A stretch of DNA of 64,000 bases from Dendrophyllia cribrosa (Eukaryota > Cnidaria > Anthozoa > Scleractinia > Dendrophylliidae), in contig JAJLRJ010000011.1 of assembly GCA_024195265.1 (NCBI GenBank), positions 18,571,427 to 18,635,426 on the forward strand, read 5' to 3'. Position numbers and translations under genes: made by a program. The notes below the pieces were generated by a model. That model saw nothing but the letters and a program-made list of their open reading frames with translations. It was not told the origin of the DNA and searched no databases. This document shows positions 9,470-15,400 of this stretch, piece by piece. The stretch's first letter is position 1. Each line of letters opens with the position of its first letter.

Positions 9470-9490
9470 TCGGCAAGATGGCGGACGATA
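9470..9490 (+). promoter_or_regulatory. YY1-type initiator element at the ZAP/PARP start codon
   Basis: GCAAGATGGCGGAC around the chosen ATG (9478) matches the YY1 core AAGATGGCGGC, which in animal promoters often overlaps the start codon of short-leader mRNAs, and also gives a good Kozak context (A at -3, G at +4). Motif seen; function inferred. Confidence 0.4.
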
Positions 9491-12400
9491 TTTTGATGGA
9501 GAAAGTTTTTAATTTTATTTGCGGCAGTGGCGGTTTTGCCGAGTTGTCTTTTCTTTTGAAAGATTCATCGCCTTTGAAAAGCATAACAACTGAACTAGAG
9601 AAAAAGAATTGGCTGAAAACGCAAGGTCGTGGTCGCTTTGTTTTGGTGAAAGATATCGACGACGAAATCATAGGTGTAAGAATTGATTTGAGAAAGAAAA
9701 TTTGTCAACAATACCTCAAGAGAGGTTTATGCCCACGAGCTCAAGGCAAGTGTAAATTCTGGCATATTTGTAAAAGCTTCATCGAAGGAAACTGCCACGG
9801 AAACTGCAACCGTTCACATAATTTTTTCGACACAGACAACACACAGAAAACCAAAGAGCTGGGACTCGAAAAACACTCGAATGGGACCTTGAGAAACATT
9901 GTTGCCTGGAGTCTACCACAGGTTTGTCGATTGTATTTGAGAAATGAATGTGAGTCGGATATATGTCCGTATCTTCATGTTTGTTCAAAAATGGTTCGAG
10001 CTGGGTTGTCATGTAATTGTGCCTTGTCACATAACCTTACCGATTCTCACAACAAGAAAATTCTGAAGCAATATGATCTGATACCACATCAGTCCATGAA
10101 GACCGCTTTTGTTCATTGCAGCATTTTGGTTCTGGAAGAGCAGAGATTTTTTGACATGGACAAAAGCTCAAACACTGTTTCTGTGGTTGAAATGCCAGCT
10201 TCAACTGCAGCACTGAATAATTTAAGTAACCCAATCACACCACTAGCCATTCAGCCATTGTCAAAGAAACCATCACTTTCAGAAAATGAAACTAAAGATG
10301 CTCAAAGAAGCACAGCTGCCAGTAACACTGCAAAAAGACGCAAACAAAACGAAACAAAAAGCAGCTCGCAGCCAGAAACAAGAAACCAAAAGAAACAACA
10401 GAGCAGAAACAGAACGAAACGTCCTGTAGTAAACAACTTGACCCATATTTCAACTGCTTCAGCACCTTGCAGAAAAAGTCTTGAATTTCTTAACATTCAA
10501 GCTGAAGAGGATGAAAACTGTTTCAAGACCTTTAATCATATCGAAGAAGACGGTACGCATGCACACACTGCTGTCAAAAGTCATTTGAAGTATCAGATGA
10601 CCGCACAGAGTTCACTCAGCAGTCTAAATGCTGCTAAGCCAAGCTGTGAGGAACTAGAAAATTATTCAGAGGTTACCCAAACTAATAATGAACTACAGAG
10701 GAAACGTCTAGTGCATTCATGTGGAGCAACGAACGACCACTCGGCTACTAAAGTTCCAAGCACTGACAGGCGATGTGATAATGGCAAAAAAACACCAGCC
10801 TCTGCAGTTTTTTGTGGTTTACCCGCAGGTGATAACGATAATGATTTTGTAAAGAAATGGGTGATGGGCAGTGATGACAAACAACCCTCTGACCTCAAAG
10901 AATCTCACAGCCTGGCAGCCTCACAAGACGCTGTAAACGTGGAGCGTGAGCGAAAGCTATCCATTTCAAGTTCCTGCAGCTCTGTTCAAGACCCTAAAAA
11001 ATGCACTCCATCCAAGAAGGCTGTCTTTGACTGCATTTTGAAGGAATACAATGGCACCGTGTCCTTTGCTACCATCTCAGATAGACAAGATCTGTTTCCT
11101 AACAGATGTGACGATATTGCAGCGTGGTTTAAAGCAAGAAAAGAAAGCTTTCTTCTCGCCGAAAGTAAAGAAGGAACAATCTTGGAGGTCAGCGCGTTTT
11201 GTCGACGGGCACAGTTGTGTTTTAATCAGTCGTGCTCTAGAAAGGATTGCCCATATTTGCACGTGTGCAGGGATTACATCGCTGGTTTCTGCAGATTTGG
11301 GGATAGATGTCAAAGAAATCACAGTTTTCAATACGACGAAGATCGGAAGTTTCTTTCTAAAATCAGGTTAACTGGTCTAACAGAAGAAAACCTTCGTAAG
11401 GTAATACAGCTTTCAATACCCCAAGTATGTTTAGACTACAATGACGGAATATGTGCAAGAGGTCAGAATTGTGCCCAGATACACATCTGCAAGGATATGA
11501 TCAAAAAGAAGTGTGAAGACGAGGAAGATTGTGGTCTCCAACACCAAAAGGCATTGCTGACGTCTCATGGAACTTCCATACTTCAGAACTATGGCCTGAA
11601 AATCAGAGATGGAAACATTAATCCAGTGCTTAGAGTTCTTTTGGTCTGCGAGGACAATCCTGCTAGTGCAAAAGATTACGGAAAGTGCACCGTTTCACCA
11701 GCAAACGATTCAATGTCCGTTGGGGCAACTGCGGCCAGCAAAGTGAGCAATCAAGACGTGTTCAGTCCTTCTACTGCTGATGCTGCTGTGATTGATAGTG
11801 AGCCATCCGAAAGGAACGTGTTTGAATGTTTGTGCAAAGAGTACGACTGTTCAGTCTCTTTTTCAGTGATTGCCAAACGAACCGATCTGTTCCCGAACGA
11901 ATTCAAAAACATTGAATCGTGGTTTCGTAAAAAGAAAGGTAGCTTTCTGTTAACAGAAAATGACAGGGGAGTCATCTCGCAAGTGGATGCCTTCTCTGCC
12001 AAAGCACGTCTTTGCTTCAGTTACAACAACGCCTTCAGTGGAAGGTGCATGAAAGAGAACTGCTCGTACCTGCACGTCTGCAGAGATTATGTCACTGATT
12101 CCTGCAGTGCTGGAGCAACATGTCTGCGGAATCACCACTTCCACAATGAGAAAGACAAAGCTTTGCTGTCGAGGATCAAGCTTGATCAGTTAACAGACCA
12201 GCAACTCCGTCAGCTTGTGCTTTCATCAGCACCTCAAATTTGTGTAGAGTACAACGATGATATATGCGATCGAGACGACTGTTGTTCTAGAATTCACATG
12301 TGCAGCGGCCACTTAAGAAAGTGCTCCAGAGAAGGATATGACTGTGTTTTAGATCACGAGTCTGCCATGACCACTGATCACACCCGAACAGTTCTTGAAC

Positions 12401-15400
12401 GTTATCATATGGATCACTTGAAATCAGACGTTGCGAAGAGGATTATGCTGGTTTACGATGACCCAACTAAGCGCAAAGAAACAGGTAAGTTATTCTATGT
12501 TTTTGGATATTGTTCAGACGTTACAAGTCAGATTTACCTTTGATTAATTTTGCCTTTTTTATCTATTGATTGTAATTTTCGAATTGCTAACAAGTTTCAT
12601 ATTTTAACTAAAAGTAAGTAAATTTAAAATGACGTAGATGAAAAACCATTGTCGTTTCTCTTAAGGTTACAGTGTACCTTCGGGGGTGTCTCCAGTATAA
12701 CAGCTCTAGCGTCTGAAGATTACACTTAATATACCTAAACCCAGATATCAAATTAAAGCTTATAGAGCTGGCTATCTAACTATGGAAACCATTTGGTAAT
12801 AAAATGAATTGTCGAATTTTTTACGACGTCTAAATTCGAACGTCCGAATCAGCTTTAAAACGCTATAACTCAAAGCGATTATTGTATTTTGCTAATTTGA
12901 TTTGTTCTCGGGTTTCCGGACACGAAGCGCTAAAAAAACGTGTCAGCGATTTCCCATATTCAATTGCAGTGAAAAGTTACAGAATATTTTCGAAAAAGGG
13001 AGAAAAAAAGTTGGAGTGATCGCACGGAAATGGCTCTTGACGAAAAAGTTTTCGGAAATAAGAAATTCGCCGACACGCTTTTGTTGATTATATGTTAGCC
13101 TAGCTTCTGTCCAAATTTGAGGAAAATCGAACAAATTCCCTTCGAGTTGTAGCTCTTTAAAGTGCCCCTACAAGCGAAAACTTAACGTTGAGTAAACAGC
13201 GCTTAGAAAAACATATCGCTTTATAAACAAACTCCGCCCACAAAAGTTATACCGTCATTTCTCCGTCAATTTTCACTATTTTTCGATAATTTTTTTTTTG
13301 GATGAAAGTTCATTCTGTAAACTTTATTTTGACGCCAAAAAAAAAATTTTCAATAAATTTTCGATCTGAAGGTACACTGTAACCTTAACCCTTTTTGATT
13401 TCGTTTTCTTATTATAATTTCATTCGTAAGTCATCTTAATTTTATTTCTTTGCTTTATTTCGTGTCATTTTTTAATTTATTTAAATCACAGTTATGAGAA
13501 TTCAAGTACATCTAAGGGAGACTCCTTTATAGCTAGTTGATGATTTTTGCTATTCTCTTCACATCTCTTCTTTACAATGTATTATGATTATTAGGAGAAA
13601 TTATATGTTGACCACTCTTGGGAATAAAAACCTTAAAAGGTTACGTCTCACATGAACTCTTTCACTTGTGTGAATAGGTCATGTTCACCAGGATAAGCCA
13701 GATGCATTCATCTGCTCAGATTTCCTTCTTGGCAAATGTAAGAAGGGCTACGAGTGTTCAGAGCACCACTGCTCTTTGCCTTTCCACTGGCAATACAAAG
13801 TTCCGAAAGTTGACGAATGGAAAAGTTTTAGCGAGACGGACAACGAGACGCTGGAGAAACTGTACTGTGACGTGAAGCTAGAGGACTGCTCAGCTACAGG
13901 CTTTCAGATTTCTTTCGAAAGGCAAGTTGCATTGTTTTAAGTACATCCGTGAGCGTTCTTAGCAATTGCAACTTTAAAAATTTCATTTACATACATAAAA
14001 TACAAAAGAAATGTAGTTACGTAAATGACGAGTGTACATGACCTACACTATTTCCATAGTTACAGAAATTCCTATCAGCACATGAATACTTGCGTATGAT
14101 GCATAATTATGAAACATCTGCGAGTCAGCCGAAGAAATGTGAAGGGAAACTATGTAGCCCAATACTTGTTGCCTTTTTAACTACATAAAAAGGGACAAAT
14201 GGATTTTATTTACAAACTATAAAGTGCTGTTTAGTTCGTTCAATGTGTGCATACAGTGGAGTGTACCGCACCTCCACTACTCCACCGCGCCACCACTACT
14301 CCAATACACTACACCACTACACCACCGGTTGTTCGAAAGCCGACTTTAAAAGGCCAATCCTGGATTAAAAGTGAACCAAGTGTTTCATTTCTCTGTTTAA
14401 AAATGTTTTCAAAAGGTCATTTATATCTAATAGTGAAAACAAGTTTAAGTATAAACTGAAAGGCAGAAAACTTTGGAAAATTTTCATTTGTTAAGTTATT
14501 TAACTGGATTCAAAATTGACGCTAATCCTGGGTTAGCTTAAAAATCTCGTGCTTTGAACAACCCGGCCCTGGAGTTTATTTTATTTATTTTTCTTCTTCT
14601 TTTTTATAGTGAGGGATTAATGCTGCTCGACGATGGATATGACGTAAGCTTTCTGCTTGATAATAAGCTAATGATTATACAGAAAGATTCGGACGTGATT
14701 GCCGAAATAAGGCGCCTCTCTGCTGAATCGTATGCCACTAATCCTGGTAACCCTGTGGCTACTACATGGACTTGGTATTGGAAGGACGAGAATGGAATTT
14801 GGCGAGAGTACGATGTAGACGATTTGGTGAGGTTAACGCAGATGTTATATCCGGTATTGCCCCTTGGGTCAGTAAGATATATGTTTCTGGAGTGGATTGT
14901 TAATGTGTATCCTTCCAACTCATATGTTGCATTATATAGTGACGATATATGTAAAGCTGCAATCAGCGAACCTTCCATGCCATCTGTAACCCTAATGCTT
15001 TTCATTTTAAAAACTTTTATTGAAGTTAAAAAAAAAAGAAATTAAATGCACGATAATATATTCAAAGAAAGAAAAGTAAATATTACCTGCGTGACTCGTG
15101 ACATGACCGACCACGTTTTGCAAGCTTTTGCAGGCTTATGTGCTCATCTGTGTCACTGCCACCTATTTTTTTTACTGAATATAAAGGAACGACACCCCCC
15201 CCAGGAGGGGGGGGGGGGGGGGGGTACTCCAGGTATATTAGTGACGAGGAGCCCCAGAAAAATCCCACGGCCCAAAACGTAACCCCCCAAAAGTCCCTTT
15301 TGTCTCTGCATAAAAATGGTAAACTCTCACACATGTTATGAATTAACCGCTATAACAGGAAGTCTCCTTGTAATTTGCATGAAGTTTACGTTTGTGTATG

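What the first reader, a model, noticed from the sequence alone, without database searches (positions are those of the whole stretch)
9478..12484. A ZAP/PARP12-type protein with the RNA-binding module in three copies
One exon encodes three successive ZAP N-terminal-like modules, each a winged-helix-like part followed by four CCCH fingers (about residues 1-220, 513-721, 779-995), plus a further CCCH before the WWE domains: 13 fingers. All Cys/His ligands are present, with varied spacing (for example C-x10-C-x4-C-x3-H in module 3). Known human ZAP and PARP12 have one module. Modules 2 and 3 resemble each other more (DLFPN, SYLHVCRDY/PYLHVCRDY) than module 1, suggesting stepwise internal duplication. 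This could widen RNA specificity or avidity in innate defence.
Basis: partly seen in the sequence, partly recalled or inferred. Interest (0 to 1): 0.85.

Follow-up and report, generated by a model that had tools for sequence, protein, structure and literature searches.

The report
Coral PARP12 with three RNA-binding modules
A gene from a probable stony coral encodes a relative of the human antiviral proteins ZAP and PARP12 that carries the RNA-gripping module three times instead of once, plus an apparently intact ADP-ribosylating enzyme and a likely lipid-anchor tail; its relatives have up to five modules and lancelets two, so the single-module human form may not be the original one.

Summary
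Confirmed and extended. Exon 9478-12484 encodes three divergent modules (24-42% identical), each a winged helix plus four CCCH fingers, with all 48 ligands. Each module class matches vertebrate PARP12/ZAP modules; the family profile's best PDB hit is human ZAP (E 2.3e-11). The whole gene (six exons, 9478-20874, 1589 aa) adds a 13th finger, two WWE domains, a PARP12-like H-Y-I catalytic domain and a C-terminal CLVM CaaX box. It is not a one-off: named corals (Porites, Montipora, Acropora, Oculina, Stylophora) have two to four modules, unnamed relatives five, and the same genome has at least seven other multi-module frames, all on contig C16. Modules group by position across species, so the triplication is old. 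Amphioxus PARP12 has two modules, the second grouping with coral modules 2-4: a two-module PARP12 may predate the cnidarian-bilaterian split (moderate support). Human CpG-contact residues are mostly not kept, so CpG sensing should not be assumed. Best reading: a membrane-anchored mono-ADP-ribosyltransferase aimed by several RNA-binding heads. RNA binding and antiviral function are untested. New variant of a known kind (PARP12-like, not ZAP).

The parts
9478..12484 (+). Exon 1: start codon, three ZAP-type modules and two disordered linkers (1002 codons + 1 base)
   Evidence: Open frame 9310-12543, translation, donor CAG|GTAAGT; homologues align over the full length
9478..10137 (+). Module 1 (residues 1-220): winged helix + four CCCH fingers, class A
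   Evidence: Profile 236 bits; hhalign class A to vertebrate PARP12/ZAP 98.4% over 199 columns; pLDDT about 69-91 by blocks of ten in the best model
10138..11007 (+). Linker (residues 221-510), predicted disordered
   Evidence: pLDDT under 50 for residues 226-507
11008..11655 (+). Module 2 (residues 511-726): winged helix + four CCCH fingers, class B
   Evidence: Profile 294 bits; hhalign 99.0% over 150 columns; best PDB profile stretch lies here, 6uei E 2.3e-11; folded alone only the winged helix is confident
11803..12459 (+). Module 3 (residues 776-994): winged helix + four CCCH fingers, class C
13678..13921 (+). Exon 2: 13th CCCH finger (13713-13769) and WWE 1; followed by a GC-AG intron
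   Evidence: Splice ends and continuous frame; Pfam WWE E 7.6e-4, 20.2 bits, just under its cut-off of 21.1; Porites protein P0040 aligns
14610..14826 (+). Exon 3: WWE 2, first part
   Evidence: Pfam WWE E 0.0074, partial and under cut-off; ZAP central domain 7kzh E 8.3e-16, best stretch over the WWE 2 region
15924..16129 (+). Exon 4: WWE 2, second part
18413..18649 (+). Exon 5: first part of PARP catalytic domain
   Evidence: aligned to PARP12 2pqf
20016..20874 (+). Exon 6: rest of PARP catalytic domain, Ser/Pro-rich tail, stop
   Evidence: Pfam PF00644 E 9.7e-24; 2pqf human PARP12 E 8.7e-49
20860..20871 (+). C-terminal CaaX-type box Cys-Leu-Val-Met
   Evidence: Cys at the same place in 7 of the 8 best-scoring PARP frames of this genome, this gene included, and in 8 of 15 PARP-bearing relatives

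Best explanation
It is one intact gene of a stony coral (organism inferred from its relatives) for a multi-module PARP12-type mono-ADP-ribosyltransferase. Three ZAP-fold RNA-binding heads (module 1 separated from module 2 by about 290 disordered residues, module 2 from module 3 by about 50) sit in front of a CCCH-WWE-WWE part that probably reads ADP-ribose, a catalytic domain with the H-Y-I arrangement of active PARP12, and a CaaX end that should be prenylated. Most likely mechanism: the protein, held at cytosolic membranes by its prenyl anchor, grips one RNA or several neighbouring RNAs through heads of different specificity; multivalent binding gives avidity and a length or repeat threshold and concentrates the enzyme, which then mono-ADP-ribosylates itself, the RNA-protein complex or nearby proteins to block translation or mark the RNA. 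Shown here: gene anatomy, homology, conserved ligands, purifying selection, age of the modules, CaaX pattern. Inferred: RNA binding, differing specificity, prenylation, catalysis, antiviral role.
Against: No RNA-binding, expression or infection data. The human CpG contacts K89/Y98/K107/Y108 are K/G/N/R, R/F/Q/R and R/A/L/R in the three modules; some changes are conservative (K to R, Y to F), most are not. [quoted passage not shown] Only one of five AlphaFold models was good (mean pLDDT 63 against 36-47), the Foldseek superpositions are loose (rmsd about 10, TM to target 0.44-0.50), and module 2 folded alone was poor (pLDDT 50). Relatives without a CaaX end: 7 of 15 PARP-bearing relatives, and Nematostella, amphioxus and brittle-star PARP12. 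WWE Pfam scores are under cut-off. dS is partly saturated.
Confidence: 0.65

Rival explanations
1. The extra modules are protein-protein or structural units, not RNA binders; the protein works as a PARP12-like stress or membrane-traffic enzyme, and the duplications tune complex assembly.
For: Human CpG-contact residues are mostly not kept; human PARP12 with the same module showed no detectable RNA binding (PMC8102003, passage). Zinc ligands would be kept for folding alone.
Against: Residues at several pocket columns are class-specific and largely conserved within a class, and the four-finger ligand pattern of ZAP is kept in the modules aligned.
Confidence: 0.22
2. The CCCH-WWE-PARP family is a general RNA-regulation or symbiosis/heat-stress factor in corals with no special role against viruses.
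For: No evidence of function was available; PARPs have many roles (general knowledge). This copy lies on a different contig from the cluster.
Against: Local expansion with differing module number, near-identical copies beside older ones resembles immune families (inference); vertebrate kin are antiviral (PMC8102003, PMC8568172, passages).
Confidence: 0.3
3. Annotation artefact: the modules belong to separate or alternatively spliced genes and are only read as one open frame.
For: No transcript from this genome was available.
Against: One uninterrupted 1002-codon exon; many relatives align over the whole length; gene models of other corals join modules to WWE and PARP (P0040, P0053, P0097).
Confidence: 0.04
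4. Modules 2 and 3 are a recent or assembly-made duplication.
For: Modules 2 and 3 share motifs such as DLFPN and YLHVCRDY.
Against: Only 42% identical, synonymous sites saturated, and each groups with the same position in other corals.
Confidence: 0.01

Closest known systems
PARP12 (human, fish, Nematostella)
   Same: Winged helix + four CCCH, fifth CCCH, two WWE, catalytic domain with H-Y-I; human PARP12 catalytic domain is the best PDB match
   Different: One module there, three here; 1589 aa; human PARP12 lacks the CaaX box (PMC8568172, passage), this protein has one
ZAP / ZC3HAV1 / PARP13 (tetrapods)
   Same: Same module fold, same domain order, CaaX end; a four-module Oculina relative even ends CVIS like human ZAP-L
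   Different: ZAP has one module, an inactive PARP domain and the CpG pocket; human ZAP falls among vertebrate PARP12 in the trees, apart from coral modules
Amphioxus PARP12 (P0140, P0142)
   Same: More than one module in one protein: two (34-235, 303-517 in P0140); the second groups with coral modules 2-4
   Different: Two modules, 981 aa, no CaaX end
Coral multi-module relatives (e.g. P0040 Porites lutea, P0053 Montipora foliosa, P0097 Oculina patagonica)
   Same: Modules, WWE and PARP in one protein, CaaX end; public entries named uncharacterized or ZAP1-like
   Different: Two to four modules in named corals, five in two unnamed relatives; classes A, B, C and in the four-module form D

Membership tests
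PARP12-type mono-ADP-ribosyltransferases | N-terminal winged helix + four CCCH module of the PARP12/ZAP kind | tested here: met
   three times
PARP12-type mono-ADP-ribosyltransferases | Central CCCH finger with two WWE domains | tested here: met
   Finger by its ligands; WWE 2 by 7kzh E 8.3e-16; WWE 1 is weaker: Pfam E 7.6e-4, under cut-off, and alignment to Porites P0040, whose record carries two WWE families
PARP12-type mono-ADP-ribosyltransferases | Catalytic domain closest to PARP12 with H-Y-I arrangement | tested here: met
   2pqf E 8.7e-49, motifs aligned; which residue is the third of the triad is recalled
PARP12-type mono-ADP-ribosyltransferases | A single N-terminal module | tested here: not met
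   Three modules; I do not take this as family-defining, because amphioxus PARP12 has two
PARP12-type mono-ADP-ribosyltransferases | Mono-ADP-ribosylation activity | not testable with these tools
   Needs an enzyme assay
ZAP (ZC3HAV1) | CpG pocket residues K89, Y98, K107, Y108 | tested here: not met
   Identical only at K89, in module 1; K to R at 89 in modules 2 and 3 and Y to F at 98 in module 2 are conservative (residues named in PMC8102003)
ZAP (ZC3HAV1) | Catalytic motif lost | tested here: not met
   PARP12-like active-type motifs present
ZAP (ZC3HAV1) | Orthology to the tetrapod ZAP lineage | tested here: not met
   Human ZAP groups with vertebrate PARP12; in the tree, without other vertebrates, it sat on a long branch on the BCD side
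ZAP (ZC3HAV1) | C-terminal CaaX box (long isoform) | tested here: met
   Ends CLVM; prenylation itself not testable here
ZAP (ZC3HAV1) | RNA binding and antiviral activity | not testable with these tools
   Needs CLIP and infection assays

The most novel reading that the evidence does not exclude
The ancestor of cnidarians and bilaterians already had a two-module PARP12 (classes A and BCD). Stony corals elaborated it to four or five heads and expanded it into a chromosomal cluster, amphioxus kept two, and the vertebrate line that gave PARP12 and ZAP was pared to one. A CaaX membrane anchor was likewise an early, or repeatedly gained, feature of PARP12-like proteins and not a tetrapod ZAP invention, so ZAP may have kept or regained, rather than invented, membrane anchoring.
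Probability: 0.5. Interest if true: 0.72.

Novelty: new variant of a known kind. Interest (0 to 1): 0.62.

Why it matters
ZAP and PARP12 are standard antiviral proteins, and their history is used to explain CpG depletion in RNA viruses. Published accounts give invertebrates typically one copy (PMC8102003), and a survey of vertebrates places the CaaX box and ZAP-type finger fold in the lungfish/tetrapod line (PMC12204182; both read as passages). Corals show a many-copy, many-headed, CaaX-ended form that may be active, so the order of those events becomes testable, and they offer a natural series of one to at least four heads on one enzyme for asking how the number of RNA-binding heads sets specificity and avidity.

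Tried and rejected

Rows dropped or limits: the tree used 83 rows, non-own modules thinned at 72% identity; the tree used 43 chosen rows; one search dropped Nematostella and Callorhinchus. In one search the test of one all-coral clade was not rejected at 0.05 (p 0.061). The groups tested were named after seeing the tree, so the p values are somewhat optimistic. One search listed 120 of 688 hits; the CaaX counts on it cover only those 120. One search counted 14 PARP-bearing relatives and left out the fish protein P0115, which also lacks the box, hence 8 of 15. Its 13 TIPARP-named rows leave out four TIPARP-like rows (P0143, P0145, P0151, P0161), which are not among the CaaX rows either. The own-genome family searches score only the best candidates. 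P0115 shows two partial module hits but looks like a possible gene fusion and was not pursued.
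Full report
Observation. The frame 9310-12543 is open. From the conserved start at 9478 to the donor after base 12484 it gives 1002 codons. A module profile built from the three copies and iterated over relatives finds full modules at residues 8-220, 511-726 and 776-994 with 236, 294 and 288 bits. All 48 Cys/His ligands of the 12 fingers are present; over 256 modules from 96 proteins 15 of the 16 ligand columns are 99-100% conserved and one is 89% (invariant columns also). 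The 13th finger opens exon 2. Pairwise identities are 42% for modules 2 and 3, 26% for 1 and 2, and 24% for 1 and 3.

The whole gene. Using coral relatives as guides, the gene has six exons (9478-12484, 13678-13921, 14610-14826, 15924-16129, 18413-18649, 20016-20874), a 4770-nt CDS with no inner stop and 1589 residues; one intron is GC-AG. After the modules come the 13th CCCH finger, two WWE domains (the first only weakly scored) and a PARP domain. The catalytic domain's best solved relative is human PARP12 (2pqf, E 8.7e-49), with the same LFHGTS, YFA and YPEY[VI]I motifs, so the H-Y-I arrangement of an active mono-transferase is kept (the name of the triad is recalled). The protein ends Lys-Cys-Leu-Val-Met, a CaaX-type box.

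A family, not a freak. Of the 96 proteins (window plus 95 hits), 56 hold three full modules, 26 two, 5 four, 2 five, 6 one and 1 none; many are raw exon frames or near copies and most are unnamed. Named full proteins include Porites lutea (three modules, WWE, PARP), Montipora foliosa (three), Acropora palmata (two) and Oculina patagonica (four). In the window's own genome (627 Mb), merged loci show eight frames with two or more modules: the window's on C3 and seven on C16 between 57.07 and 57.44 Mb, two of them cut by the edge of the DNA held; plus four single-module frames, one cut by an edge, of which two lie well apart from the cluster with a PARP exon downstream. These are lower bounds. 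Some C16 copies are nearly identical (dS 0.04), others older (dS up to 0.46); window against C16 gives dN/dS of about 0.11, 0.26 and 0.13 for modules 1, 2 and 3, so each module is under purifying selection.

Age. In a tree of 83 modules the window's m1, m2 and m3 each fall with the same position of other relatives; m1 and the single-module coral genes form one side (class A), and modules 2, 3 and the second of four-module proteins the other (human ZAP, the only vertebrate row, sat on a long branch on that second side). Amphioxus PARP12 of two species has two modules. In a tree with vertebrate, Nematostella, brittle-star and amphioxus modules, amphioxus m2 falls inside the coral B/C/D group (19 rows, 99/97), while amphioxus m1 is not firmly placed and human ZAP joins vertebrate PARP12. 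Holding both amphioxus modules together is rejected at p 0.034, all 29 coral modules together at p 0.025. With another alignment and 41 rows the branch has 97/94 and the p values are 0.031 and 0.061. I read this as moderate evidence that the first duplication predates the split of cnidarians and bilaterians; the groups were named after seeing the tree.

CpG. The contacts of human ZAP named in PMC8102003 (passage) are K89, Y98, K107 and Y108. The aligned residues are K, G, N, R in module 1; R, F, Q, R in module 2; R, A, L, R in module 3. Among the 58 three-module rows (window apart), position 1 has K at column 89 in 57, position 2 has R in 49 and position 3 has R in 44. So these columns are class-specific but are not the human CpG pocket.

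CaaX. Of the eight best-scoring PARP frames of this genome (of 65 matches), 7 end in Cys-x-x-x, the window's own included, and also the PARP frames downstream of the two single-module genes. Of 15 PARP-bearing relatives do; of 120 listed, 53 do, including 30 of 52 with a module match of about 39 bits or more, many of them ray-finned fish (CVIS, CVIA, CIIS); of 13 named TIPARP, none does; of 100 N-terminal control frames, 2. The sea anemone Actinostola protein ends CVVM; Nematostella, amphioxus and brittle-star PARP12 have none. PMC8568172 (passages) reports that human ZAP-L ends CVIS, is farnesylated and needs this, and that human PARP12 lacks it; PMC12204182 (passages), a vertebrate survey, places the gain of the box in tetrapods. 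The present data suggest a wider and older, or repeatedly gained, distribution.

How it most likely works. The anatomy fits a membrane-anchored mono-ADP-ribosyltransferase aimed by several RNA-binding heads on flexible linkers, giving avidity and a combined specificity, with WWE domains reading ADP-ribose. Steps shown: anatomy, homology, constraint, age. Steps inferred: RNA binding of each head, prenylation, catalysis, defence. Rivals are that the extra heads bind proteins, or that the role is not antiviral.

Known or new. I file it as PARP12-like, not as ZAP, because the CpG pocket and the dead catalytic site of ZAP were tested and not met. The sequences of relatives are public, where named mostly as uncharacterized proteins; I saw no paper on multi-module forms in searches of an open-licence library (listings, and passages of four papers). 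PMC8102003 says invertebrates typically have one ZAP/PARP12-related copy (passage), which this genome does not follow.

Noticed in passing
20860-20871; L001, L003, L005-L008: CaaX-type ends on 7 of the 8 best PARP frames of this genome and on many listed ray-finned-fish PARP12-like proteins; an Oculina four-module protein ends CVIS exactly like human ZAP-L. This sits badly with a tetrapod origin of the box.
   Followed up: partly
G000 C16:57067491-57436940: Cluster of at least seven multi-module frames, with 11 places matching the PARP domain between 57.09 and 57.43 Mb and near-identical pairs (57271762/57325424 and 57360742/57433965): recent duplication or unresolved haplotypes.
   Followed up: partly
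G000 C16:57360742 and C16:57433965 frames: These three-module frames have a different make-up: two class-A modules followed by one BCD-class module, so corals reached three heads by more than one route.
   Followed up: partly
P0115 (Prochilodus, fish): A fish PARP12-like protein with two partial module hits; possibly a fusion of neighbouring gene models.
   Followed up: no
17499-18312: Minisatellite of 21/36/57-base units inside intron 4 of the gene; it opens long frames on both strands that look meaningless.
   Followed up: no
19549-19922: 38-base tandem repeat with poly-G runs in intron 5, about 95 bases before the catalytic exon.
   Followed up: no
5458-6576: 56 copies of a 20-base unit, 96% matches, that read as open frames in three phases.
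   Followed up: no
2-1846 and 27501-28217: Reverse transcriptase with zf-RVT (1.6e-18), and a separate GIY-YIG frame (5.3e-6): probably retroelement remains.
   Followed up: no
50233-51156 and 56922-58970, minus strand: Laminin-G/EGF exon and a long EGF-repeat exon with a Ser/Thr-rich stretch; probably cell-surface proteins.
   Followed up: no
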